Positions 40,682-43,862 of a DNA stretch of 64,000 bases are shown here, piece after piece. The notes under the pieces are model-generated. The model was not told the DNA's origin. It saw nothing but the letters and a program-made list of their open reading frames with translations, and did not search any database. The translations under genes were made by a program, and so were the position numbers. The stretch's first letter is position 1. Every line of letters begins with the position of its first letter. The stretch is from Pomacea canaliculata (taxonomy: Eukaryota; Mollusca; Gastropoda; Architaenioglossa; Ampullariidae): NCBI RefSeq assembly GCF_003073045.1, contig NC_037590.1, positions 1,178,001 to 1,242,000 on the forward strand, given 5' to 3'.

Positions 40682-43588
40682 GTGGGTGAAGGGTGTGCCC
40701 TGTGCATGTCCACTGCAATCTGTTTCATCCTTAGGTTCTGATAGCGTGTTACAAACTCTTAAGTAATTGACTTTAATAATGACATGTTCTGAACATTAAT
40801 TGCTTATGTTTCAATATTTAAAATGCCTTTTTAAAATTGCAGTCTCATCGTAAATTTTCTGCACCCCGTCACGGGTCGAAAGGCTTTCTCCCCAAGAAGA
40901 GAAGCAAACGTCATCGTGGTAAGGTAAAGGCATTTCCCAAGGATGATCCTTCGAAGCCTGTACATCTCACGGCGTTTCTGGGCTATAAGGCTGGAATGAC
41001 CCATGTCGTTCGCGAGGTCGACCGACCAGGATCAAGTACGTTGCTAGATACCAGATAACAACATTTTTTCTGACACTAATTCTCTAGTGAAAGGTTTCGT
41101 TTCTTTTCTTTGTAATTGCTGGAACAACAAGCGCTATAAAAAGCTAGTTAACGGTAACAATTTAACCACAGTGCCAGCTCCAGTCTTCATAATAGTTGAT
41201 GAACTGTCCGTTCCTAACACTGTGGATATCGACGGGATATCGCTGTACCAAGGCTTGCGTCAGAGTTTCTTGGTACGGTTTCTTCCCCACATGCTGATTA
41301 AATTATATGTAAAATAGTTTTTTTGAGTGTTTTGAAATGTGGAGTTAATGGGGTTGACTGACCTTTTGCAGAGGTGAACAAGAAGGAGGTGGTAGAAGCA
41401 GTCACCATCATCGAAACTCCACCCATGGTTTGCGTTGGTGTCGTTGGGTATATTGAAACGCCACGTGGCATGCGCACATTTAAAACTGTGTGGGCAGAAC
41501 ACCTGAGTGAAGAATGCAAGCGACGTTTCTACAAGAACTGGTTCGAGCATTTAAATTAATTTCTAAAATACAGTGTATTGTATGGAGGAGTAATTTGTCT
41601 ATGATAAGAAAATAAGCATAGTTTTTCTCCGATTCAAGTGTGAAGTTGACTGTTGAATGCACTGTTTGGGCGTGAGAACAGCACAGGTGCTAGGCACTCA
41701 TTTTTTGTGAACGTGTTCATCAACTGTGCTCTCTATGACATGACATTTGTTTCTCAGTGCACTTCCTGGTTGACGTCCATGGCTGTCACCTGTTGCACCA
41801 TTGTTTTGCTCCTCTCTGGCATTACCAATATATTGGTAGCAATGCTGATGAGCAACTAGTGTCTCCTCTGACACACAGATTGTGTGTGTGACGAGACTGA
41901 ATTTTTGATAGTTTTTTGAGGATTTGGCAGGTAAATTACAATTGAATGATTTATTGAGGACAAGCTAAAGCTCTTCTATTTTCAGTAATTTCTAAGGGAA
42001 AAATTGTTGGCGTACAGCCTAATTGCTGTACTTGGTGTTTCGCAATGCATTCAATTCAAAAGCAAGTACCAGAGCTGTTAGGCATTTAAAACTTTTGTAA
42101 CCTATTTTGGTCAGGTCCCGGTCTAAGAAGAAGGCATTTACCAAGTATGCCAAGAAATGGCAGGATGAGAGTGGAAAGAAAGATATTGAAAATGACTTTA
42201 ACAAAATGAAAAAGTACTGCACAGTCATCCGTGTCATTGCACACACTCAGGTAACAAATTACTGCTTATGTAAGTTTTAATCTTTTCATTAAAATACATA
42301 TCTGGCTGACGTGTGATGAAAAGGTGGATAGTACCCCTGCCAGGGTACACAGAAAATTTTGTGTTGAGCTAATCCATCATGCTGCCTTCCTTCTGATTGT
42401 CAGTTGCCAGGTTTAAGTTAATTTCATTAGTTGCTGATTGGCTAATTATAAGTTATCAGCTTTGGGTTTTTTTTTTTTTTTTGCAAGCTTCATCGGGAAT
42501 GTGTTTTGTGTTGCAGTCTAAGCTCCTGCGTCAACGCCAGAAAAAAGCCCACATTATGGAAATTCAGCTGAATGGTGGTTCCATTCCTGACAAAGTTGAA
42601 TGGGCAAAAGCTCATCTTGAGAAGACCGTTTCAGTCAACGCAGTCTTTGACCAGAATGAGTTGATTGACACCATTGGTGTTACAAAGGGTCGTGGTGTGA
42701 AAGGTTTGTAAACCATGCCTTTTGTATGCTGGTTAGGCGTAAAGCACTGGTCAGATCCATCAACTGGTTTATAATTTTTCACTGTGGCTGAGTGTAAAGT
42801 AGTGCTTGTTTGGTGTGGGTTTACTATTAACGTTTTGCCTTGCTATTCGTGCAGGAGTAACATCAAGATGGCACACAAGAAGCTGCCACGAAAGACCCAC
42901 AAGGGTCTGCGCAAAGTTGCCTGCATTGGTGCCTGGCACCCCAGCCGTGTTCAGTTTTCTGTGGCACGTGCTGGTCAGAAGGGCTATCACCACAGGACTG
43001 AAATTAACAAGAAGATTTACCGGATTGGCATGGGCATCCACACAAAGGACAACAAGGTAACAATGTGCCATATGTATGTCTAATTAAGGGGTTAGCTAGT
43101 ATGGTATTTTTGTAGATTTTATAGCTAAGAGTAATGAAACAAGTAAATTTTTGTTAATTTATATGTGCAGCTCGTTGCCAACAATGCTTCCACTGAATTT
43201 GACCCCACTGAAAAGACCATAACACCGATGGGTGGTTTCCCTCACTATGGTGAAGTCCGTCAGGATTACCTCATGATCAAGGGCTGCATCATTGGTCCAC
43301 GCAAACGAGTGATCACTTTGAGAAAAGTAAGTTGAGATTGTTACCTATGATGCATGCTGTTTAAAATTGACTGTTACCCCTTAATGGATTTGCACTGATT
43401 ATCTGCTTTTTTTTTAAATTTAGTCCCTGCTTGCCACCTTCCGTCGTCGTCACATTGAGAACATAAACCTCAAGTTTATCGACACTTCCAGCAAATGGGG
43501 ACATGGTCGCTTCCAGACTCTGGAGGAGAAGCGTAACTTCATGGGCCCTCTCAAGAAAGAGTTGCTGAGCCGTGAAGCAGCCTCTTAA
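40679..43588 (+). CDS. RPL3: Ribosomal protein L3 (uL3), 8 exons
   Basis: Large-subunit protein beside the peptidyl-transferase centre. Exons: 40679-40681 (ATG), 40843-41035, 41372-41540, 42115-42250, 42517-42703, 42855-43056, 43171-43326, 43424-43588. Clear family blocks: [69 protein letters not shown] with [20 protein letters not shown], and [12 protein letters not shown] [12 protein letters not shown]. The total is 1211 nt; one base is missing near 42877-42883 (CACACAAGAAG, where family members encode HTKKL). Restoring the phase would give 403 residues, the human length. I read that as a consensus error, since all else is intact. ATTAAA at 43631. Introns host snoRNAs. Confidence 0.96.
41166..41294 (+). 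ncRNA. H/ACA-box-like snoRNA in RPL3 intron 2, copy 1
   Basis: Two-hairpin layout, 129 nt. Hairpin 1 closes with CCACAGTG (41166-41173) and CACTGTGG (41218-41225). The hinge ATATCG follows at 41226 (H box ANANNA with one mismatch). Hairpin 2 has GTACCAAG (41245-41252) with CTTGGTAC (41269-41276) above an open pocket and a GGG/CCC base. ACA at 41289-41291 is followed by three bases. A paralogue with the same layout lies at 43736. TATAAA at 41135-41140 precedes it. Target pseudouridine not assigned. Confidence 0.6.
42302..42410 (+). ncRNA. SNORD83: SNORD83-like C/D-box snoRNA in RPL3 intron 4
   Basis: Terminal stem: CTGGC and TGAC (42302-42310) pair with GTCA (42399-42402) and GCCAG (42406-42410), with a small bulge. 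C box GTGATGA (42313-42319), D box CTGA (42393-42396). The bases just before the D box, GCTGCCTTCCTT (42381-42392), are a perfect complement of the universal 18S rRNA segment AAGGAAGGCAGC. The fifth base upstream of the D box pairs with the A that corresponds to human A468, the known target of U83. Human U83A and U83B also lie in RPL3 introns. The box and stem evidence is direct; orthology is inferred. Confidence 0.85.
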
Positions 43589-43630
43589 ATGTCCTGTAGA
43601 CCATCTGTTCTGGGAATTCAGGCTAAAGGC

Positions 43631-43636
43631 ATTAAA
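43631..43636 (+). terminator. RPL3: RPL3 poly(A) signal variant
   Basis: ATTAAA 42 bases after the RPL3 stop. Confidence 0.55.
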
Positions 43637-43735
43637 GTTTAAAATTAAGTGCTGTTTTGTTCTGTTTTACAAAGAATGGTCTGAAAGTGATTTAATGAGC
43701 ACATCGAAGCTATAAATAAAAAAAACTAGTCGTGC

Positions 43736-43862
43736 CCACAGTGCCAGCTCCAGTCTTCACAATAGTTGATGAACTGTCCGTTCCTAACACTGTGGATATT
43801 AACGGGATCTGATGAAATCAAGGCTTGTACTCGAGTTTCTTGCTCAGAAGATTCCCACATTC
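43736..43862 (+). ncRNA. H/ACA-box-like snoRNA downstream of RPL3, copy 2
   Basis: Paralogue of 41166-41294. Hairpin 1 has the same CCACAGTG (43736-43743) / CACTGTGG (43788-43795). The H box ATATTA (43796-43801) fits ANANNA exactly. Hairpin 2 has diverged but folds with its own pairs: GGGA/TTCCC, TCTGA (43808-43812)/TCAGA (43844-43848) and CAAG (43819-43822)/CTTG (43839-43842). ACA at 43857-43859 is followed by three bases. TATAAATA at 43711 sits about 25 bp upstream. It lies past the likely RPL3 poly(A) site, so it may be an independent unit or in a long read-through transcript. Confidence 0.6.

What the first reader, a model, noticed from the sequence alone, without database searches (positions are those of the whole stretch)
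41166..43862. Pair of paralogous H/ACA-like RNAs: one inside RPL3 intron 2, one just past the RPL3 3' end
Two copies about 2.57 kb apart share hairpin 1 exactly at its stem (CCACAGTG/CACTGTGG). Both have a hinge at the right place and end with ACA plus three bases. Hairpin 2 has changed between copies, yet each version folds with its own pairs (GTACCAAG/CTTGGTAC versus TCTGA/TCAGA plus CAAG/CTTG). Both carry GCTATAAA followed by CTAGT 25-31 bp upstream, so the duplicated unit may bring its own TATA-type promoter. I know of no H/ACA gene described in RPL3.
Basis: partly seen in the sequence, partly recalled or inferred. Interest (0 to 1): 0.8.

Follow-up and report, generated by a model that had tools for sequence, protein, structure and literature searches.

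The report
Twin H/ACA guide RNAs at RPL3
A snail ribosomal-protein gene seems to carry two related small guide RNAs, one in an intron and one just past its end, and both look built to direct a known chemical edit near the ribosome's catalytic centre; this is a new member of a familiar family, with an unusual second copy.

Summary
The pair is real: 41166-41294 (an RPL3 intron) and 43736-43862 (past the RPL3 stop codon), 107 nt at 85% identity; a search of the 440-Mb genome listed only these two places. They are best read as box H/ACA snoRNAs. Hairpin 1 of both frames 28S GGAACG-U-GAGCUGG with 6+6 Watson-Crick pairs, the site of yeast snR37 and chicken 28S-3976; 0 of 5000 shuffles matched it. 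Hairpin 2 of copy 1 fits a U 101 nt upstream, chicken 28S-3875 (7 of 5000). One chicken snoRNA, GGgACA30 in EIF4A2, is listed for both sites with the same hairpins, and for a third site. Hairpin 2 of copy 2 has new pairs, has lost that target and shows no convincing other. Hairpin 1 differs at 1 of 60 positions, hairpin 2 at 18 of 59, which suggests selection on hairpin 1 in both copies. The proposed promoter is not supported beyond a TATA motif. RPL3 may hold another snoRNA (weak U83-like match, 42305-42404). New member of a known kind; expression and conservation could not be tested.

The parts
41166..41294 (+). copy 1, H/ACA snoRNA in the RPL3 intron 41036-41371 (drawn to ACA+3)
   Evidence: intron borders read from sequence
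41174..41179 (+). copy 1 hairpin 1, 5' guide strand CCAGCT
   Evidence: pairs with AGCUGG after the target U and its neighbour
41209..41214 (+). copy 1 hairpin 1, 3' guide strand CGTTCC
   Evidence: pairs with GGAACG before the target U
41226..41231 (+). copy 1 hinge AUAUCG, imperfect box H
   Evidence: sequence
41240..41246 (+). copy 1 hairpin 2, 5' guide strand TCGCTGT
   Evidence: 7 pairs (one G-U) with 28S AUAGCGA
41275..41277 (+). copy 1 hairpin 2, 3' guide strand ACG, 14 nt before ACA
   Evidence: 3 pairs with 28S CGU
41289..41291 (+). copy 1 box ACA
43736..43862 (+). copy 2, H/ACA snoRNA past the RPL3 3' end (drawn to ACA+3)
43744..43749 (+). copy 2 hairpin 1, 5' guide strand CCAGCT
43779..43784 (+). 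copy 2 hairpin 1, 3' guide strand CGTTCC
43796..43801 (+). copy 2 box H AUAUUA
   Evidence: sequence
43804..43856 (+). copy 2 hairpin 2, rewritten pocket, no convincing target
43857..43859 (+). copy 2 box ACA
40843..43588 (+). RPL3 host gene (coding part seen here), the only L3-family locus matched in the genome
   Evidence: Pfam PF00297 on 40843-41034 and 41374-41541; genome search
43631..43636 (+). ATTAAA, probable RPL3 poly(A) signal, its first base 105 nt before copy 2
   Evidence: sequence; inference
42305..42404 (+). U83/SNORD83-like box C/D candidate in another RPL3 intron
   Evidence: 24.7 bits (snoU83B, E 0.17), below the gathering score of 35; a genome search gave 25.6 bits elsewhere, so the score alone does not settle it

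Best explanation
Both copies are box H/ACA snoRNAs. Hairpin 1 of each guides pseudouridylation of the 28S uridine equivalent to yeast 25S Psi2944 near the peptidyl transferase centre. Copy 1 also guides the uridine 101 nt upstream through hairpin 2, and is made from the RPL3 intron by splicing and trimming. Copy 2 is a duplicate that kept hairpin 1 and rewrote the hairpin 2 pocket, so it has one assured target at most. It probably rides on transcription past the RPL3 poly(A) site, its 5' end left where the snoRNP stops trimming. Shown: sequence, folds, pocket complementarity, uneven divergence. Inferred: expression, assembly, the modification itself, the age of the duplication and how copy 2 is made.
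For: Copies and folds. Hairpin 1 pocket, 12 Watson-Crick pairs at the 28S site; 0 of 300 shuffles over the conserved contexts of one rDNA contig, L015; runner-up among conserved contexts 7.3 against 12.3; 0 of 5000 at the site. Copy 1 hairpin 2 at the second site, 3+7 pairs, 14 nt to ACA: 7 of 5000 shuffles. The two sites lie 101 nt apart in 4 of 5 contigs holding both strings, 100 in the fifth; chicken 3976-3875 is 101. Chicken GGgACA30 is listed for 28S-3976 by its 5' hairpin (homologues snR37, SNORA82/ACA10) and for 28S-3875 by its 3' hairpin (E3), and also for 28S-1612 by its 3' hairpin (PMC2653536 Table 2). Hairpin 1 differs at 1 of 60, hairpin 2 at 18 of 59 columns (gaps counted), Fisher p 8.6e-6. 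A snoRNP after a poly(A) site can stop XRN2, and an H/ACA RNA could replace the C/D one there (PMC11028025, passages).
Against: No Rfam H/ACA family reaches its threshold; SNORA63 finds nothing credible in the genome. Copy 1 lacks a perfect box H. The guide-to-hinge spacing of hairpin 1 is 17 nt, longer than the usual 14-16 (rule recalled). The lowest-energy free folds do not show open pockets everywhere: in copy 2 hairpin 1 both guide strands are paired (frequency 0.08 of the ensemble), in copy 1 hairpin 1 three pairs cross the pocket, and the copy 1 hairpin 2 pocket is closed; for whole copy 2, 19 of 200 shuffles fold at least as well. For copy 1 hairpin 2 another conserved rRNA context scores higher (9.9 against 9.3), and 17 of 300 shuffles reach 9.9. 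In one search two other matches reach 12.3 for copy 1 hairpin 1, each in 1 of 8 contigs, with pockets cut into the apical stem. No expression data and no related species could be reached; the rDNA used is from other eukaryotes.
Confidence: 0.8

Rival explanations
1. Copy 1 is the working snoRNA and copy 2 is a duplicate that is not made into RNA and is decaying.
For: Copy 2 lies past the probable poly(A) signal; its hairpin 2 lost the target; for whole copy 2, 19 of 200 shuffles fold at least as well.
Against: Hairpin 1 is 59 of 60 identical and copy 2 has the better box H; its hairpin 2 alone folds better than 199 of 200 shuffles.
Confidence: 0.3
2. Each copy is an independent gene with its own TATA promoter.
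For: TATAAA starts 31 and 25 nt upstream; only 1.1% of window points have it 20-36 nt upstream.
Against: Upstream flanks are only weakly alike; no clear counterpart of the upstream sequence of U2 locus L030; 0 of 5 U17 copies have TATAAA in the 60 nt upstream; copy 2's motif overlaps AATAAA.
Confidence: 0.12
3. Copy 2 sits in an alternative intron of the RPL3 3' UTR (acceptor-like TTTTACAG ending at 43941, AATAAA at 43990-43995).
For: These strings are present.
Against: I looked for a donor by eye only and saw no strong one; no transcript data.
Confidence: 0.2
4. The two copies are a structured repeat without guide function and the pocket match is chance.
For: No Rfam match at threshold; closed pockets in some free folds; intact rDNA of the species was not found.
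Against: 0 of 5000 shuffles reach the hairpin 1 match, and the two sites are both listed for one chicken snoRNA with the same hairpins.
Confidence: 0.07

Closest known systems
Chicken GGgACA30 (EIF4A2 intron 8), functional homologues listed as snR37, SNORA82/ACA10 and E3
   Same: Both 28S sites by the same two hairpins (PMC2653536 Table 2).
   Different: Host is RPL3, not EIF4A2; GGgACA30 is also listed for 28S-1612, not tested here; no sequence-level match through Rfam SNORA63; a second copy with one pocket rewritten. Descent from a common gene is not shown.
Yeast snR37 (25S Psi2944)
   Same: Same site by hairpin 1 (the number 2944 is recalled). Neurospora Nc ACA15 is listed with snR37 and ACA10, guide at box H (PMC2780460, passages).
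   Different: Yeast RNA is longer (recalled).
SNORD83A/B in human RPL3
   Same: RPL3 as snoRNA host (PMC3412847, passages); a weak U83-like match lies in this RPL3.
   Different: Box C/D, not H/ACA.
SPA RNAs made past the SNURF-SNRPN poly(A) site
   Same: snoRNA downstream of a poly(A) site (PMC11028025, passages).
   Different: SPA1 and SPA2 are capped by C/D RNAs; production from this locus is untested.

Membership tests
box H/ACA snoRNA | hairpin-hinge-hairpin-tail fold | tested here: met
   whole copy 1 z -2.98 (0 of 200 shuffles), whole copy 2 z -1.52 (19 of 200); single hairpins z -2.1 to -4.2; both whole folds give two hairpins with a single-stranded hinge
box H/ACA snoRNA | box H ANANNA in the hinge | tested here: inconclusive
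   copy 2 AUAUUA fits; copy 1 AUAUCG misses the last A
box H/ACA snoRNA | ACA right after hairpin 2 | tested here: met
   41289-41291, 43857-43859
box H/ACA snoRNA | pocket complementary to RNA on both sides of a known pseudouridine | tested here: met
   hairpin 1 of both copies and hairpin 2 of copy 1; not met for hairpin 2 of copy 2. Several free folds show paired pocket strands
box H/ACA snoRNA | 14-16 nt from guide to box (rule recalled) | tested here: inconclusive
   copy 1 hairpin 2: 14; hairpin 1 of both: 17
box H/ACA snoRNA | bound by dyskerin, NHP2, NOP10, GAR1 as a stable RNA | not testable with these tools
   no RNA data
Rfam SNORA63 (RF00092) | covariance model score over the cut-off | tested here: not met
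   not among matches; one search lists one place elsewhere, E 1.85
independently transcribed snRNA-type gene | upstream element shared with U2 genes of the genome | tested here: not met
   best 14-, 18- and 22-base matches to the upstream 100 nt of L030 (one of 6 U2 loci read, 46 matched) are within the range of 200 random window pieces

The most novel reading that the evidence does not exclude
RPL3 makes the same peptidyl-transferase-centre guide twice by two routes: one copy by splicing of an intron, the other after cleavage at its poly(A) site, where the snoRNP blocks trimming. The second copy has a retargeted or disarmed pocket, so guide supply is tied both to splicing and to termination of a ribosomal-protein gene.
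Probability: 0.3. Interest if true: 0.55.

Novelty: new member of a known kind. Interest (0 to 1): 0.38.

Why it matters
It puts an H/ACA guide with named likely targets in an RPL3 locus, where my open-access searches showed none. It is in line with the reported movement of snoRNAs between broadly expressed host genes (PMC3511168, passages). The pair is a natural experiment in half-retargeting: one hairpin nearly frozen, the other rewritten. The place of copy 2 after the poly(A) signal makes production of an H/ACA RNA by readthrough testable at a native locus.

Tried and rejected
Rfam for the copies: nothing credible; U85 on copy 2 hairpin 2 (16.6 bits, E 0.6; 7.5 bits, E 3) and SNORD57 on hairpin 1 (14.5 bits, E 1.8) are weak. 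SNORA63 in the genome: one place, L016, E 1.85, without the guide strands CCAGCT and CGTTCC at the match, taken as chance; 4 of 14 control genomes also rang. rDNA of the species: a 28S pattern was not found; DNA searches found many 18S-derived pieces (117 matches) and few 28S pieces (15 matches), one of which (L025) keeps GAACGTGAGCT at the site but is changed nearby. Targets were therefore scanned on eukaryotic rDNA in mis-binned contigs. These were fetched with a pattern that contains the hairpin 1 site, so its presence in 8 of 8 contigs is by construction and is no evidence of conservation. Of 13 contigs with the pattern (1, 12), 8 were scanned and 7.

Targets for hairpin 2 of copy 2: among conserved contexts only one, at 5.6. 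A relaxed scan with one mismatch per arm gave scattered hits; the one that recurs in both own 18S pieces, GAGCAA-U-AACAGG (12.6 and 12.2), needs the CAAG/CTTG stem opened and 17 nt spacing and was not adopted. snRNAs other than U2 were not scanned, and 28S-1612 was not tested. Promoter elements; the bacterial-type scan found nothing and has no bearing. The covariance model of the two copies could not be run on the genome, so diverged paralogues may be missed. The U83 label rests and the host gene; the genome search listed one other place at 25.6 bits, did not list the RPL3 one, and 12 of 14 control genomes rang, so the score is not discriminating. The exon piece 42857-43054 gave no Pfam or PDB match, because its frame breaks.

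Full report
What was checked. The window lies in a 440,159,624-base genome of 24 contigs whose contig C1 is 45,418,568 bases. The golden apple snail paper gives 440,071,717 bases and a longest scaffold of 45.4 Mb (PMC6129957, passages), so the species is probably Pomacea canaliculata or a close relative. Against this, the paper gives 27.2 Mb as the shortest of 14 large scaffolds while C10 here is 26.5 Mb. The identification is an inference. The host gene is RPL3 (PF00297 at 1.1e-28 and 9.6e-27 on exons either side of copy 1), the only L3-family locus matched in the genome: all 6 matches listed lie at C1:1218843-1221329.

The repeat. Copy 1 (41166 onwards) and copy 2 (43736 onwards) are 85% identical over 107 ungapped bases, and a DNA search of the own genome lists these two places only; the tool says that it skips common words, and diverged paralogues are not excluded. 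Clear similarity stops at the start of hairpin 1 and near the ACA: the 60-nt downstream flanks score like shuffles (792 of 2000 reach the score), the upstream flanks are weakly alike at best (272 of 2000 shuffles; 68 of 3000 random window pieces). Hairpin 1 differs at 1 of 60 positions, hairpin 2 at 18 of 59 columns (12 mismatches, 6 gaps; Fisher p 8.6e-6). In hairpin 2 the apical stem strands CAAGGCTTG and GAGTTTCTTG are kept while both pocket strands are changed; each version still folds. A plain decaying duplicate would not be expected to show this unevenness; recombination or gene conversion of hairpin 1 could.

The guide. An H/ACA pocket pairs with the bases before the target U and the bases after U and its neighbour. 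Hairpin 1 of both copies offers CCAGCT and CGTTCC, which frame GGAACG-U-G-AGCUGG of 28S rRNA with 12 Watson-Crick pairs. I noticed this site by recall of the 28S sequence and then tested it. Over 30 pockets (copy 1) and 28 pockets (copy 2) consistent with an upper stem it scores 12.3. Two other matches reach 12.3 for copy 1, each in one contig and with pockets cut into the apical stem; among conserved contexts the next best is 7.3, and 0 of 300 shuffles over the conserved contexts of contig L015 reach 12.3. At the site itself 0 of 5000 shuffles do. The site is yeast Psi2944 by count from the A-loop (recalled) and chicken 28S-3976, for which snR37 and SNORA82/ACA10 are listed (PMC2653536 section 6). 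snR37 is among the snoRNAs that pseudouridylate residues in the peptidyl transferase centre (PMC1766470, passages).

The second guide. Copy 1 hairpin 2 fits AGCGU-U-C-AUAGCGA with 3+7 pairs, one of them G-U, and exactly 14 nt to ACA; 7 of 5000 shuffles do as well at that site. On its own this is modest: a different conserved context scores 9.9 against 9.3, and 17 of 300 shuffles reach 9.9 somewhere. Its weight comes from position: this U is 101 nt before the first site in 4 of 5 contigs holding both strings, 100 in the fifth, and 28S-3875 and 28S-3976 of chicken are 101 apart. Chicken GGgACA30 is listed for 3976 by its 5' hairpin and for 3875 by its 3' hairpin, and for a third site, 1612, by its 3' hairpin, which I did not test. 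I had seen that table before the scan; it was not used to choose pockets. Copy 2 hairpin 2 scores 0 at the 3875 site and finds no convincing target elsewhere.

How each copy may be made. Copy 1 lies within a 336-base intron (41036-41371) with its ACA 80 bases before the exon, an ordinary intronic snoRNA setting. Another RPL3 intron holds a weak U83-like C/D match (42305-42404; for the caution); U83A/B sit in human RPL3 (PMC3412847, passages). Copy 2 starts 105 nt after the first base of ATTAAA, the probable RPL3 poly(A) signal. A snoRNP in such a place can block XRN2 after cleavage, and an H/ACA RNA worked in place of the C/D RNA (PMC11028025, passages). That is my preferred but unproven route. 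An own TATA promoter is less likely: TATAAA does start 31 and 25 nt upstream, and only 1.1% of window points have it 20-36 nt upstream, yet the flanks are not clearly alike, the upstream sequence of a snail U2 gene has no clear counterpart, and 0 of 5 U17 copies in the genome have TATAAA in the 60 nt upstream.

Weak points. Box H of copy 1 is imperfect and hairpin 1 spacing is 17. Lowest-energy free folds pair both guide strands of copy 2 hairpin 1 and close the pocket of copy 1 hairpin 2. No Rfam family reaches threshold, and no RNA data or related species could be reached with these tools. Intact rDNA of the species was not found. Papers were seen as search listings and passages, plus section 6 of PMC2653536. 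No H/ACA RNA in RPL3 appeared in the listings of searches, and none of the 5 papers listed for Pomacea with snoRNA is a snoRNA survey of that snail by title; I did not read them.

Verdict. Two probable H/ACA snoRNA genes, a new member of a known kind, with copy 2 the unusual part.

Noticed in passing
39431-39496 +: Twister-P1 ribozyme-like element, 33.7 bits, E 9.7e-6 on a 341-base search, well below the gathering score of 67.2; the core GGUCCCAAGCCC matches.
   Followed up: partly
42305-42404 +: U83/SNORD83-like C/D candidate in an RPL3 intron, sub-threshold; the genome search does not support the score as discriminating.
   Followed up: partly
L021, L022 and other places in G000: Many dispersed or tandem copies of shortened 18S (and some 5.8S, few 28S) pieces on many contigs; in L021 three 18S matches start about 2.8 and 3.1 kb apart.
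   Followed up: partly
42857-42900 +: The reading frame of this RPL3 exon breaks shortly after VTSRWHT although only one L3 locus was matched; perhaps an assembly indel.
   Followed up: partly
9878-11875 +: 665-codon open frame that looks by eye like a retroelement Gag with a CCHC knuckle.
   Followed up: no
G000:C4:20529349-20535422: Five U17/SNORA73 matches within about 6.1 kb, 5 of 5 over the family cut-off.
   Followed up: partly
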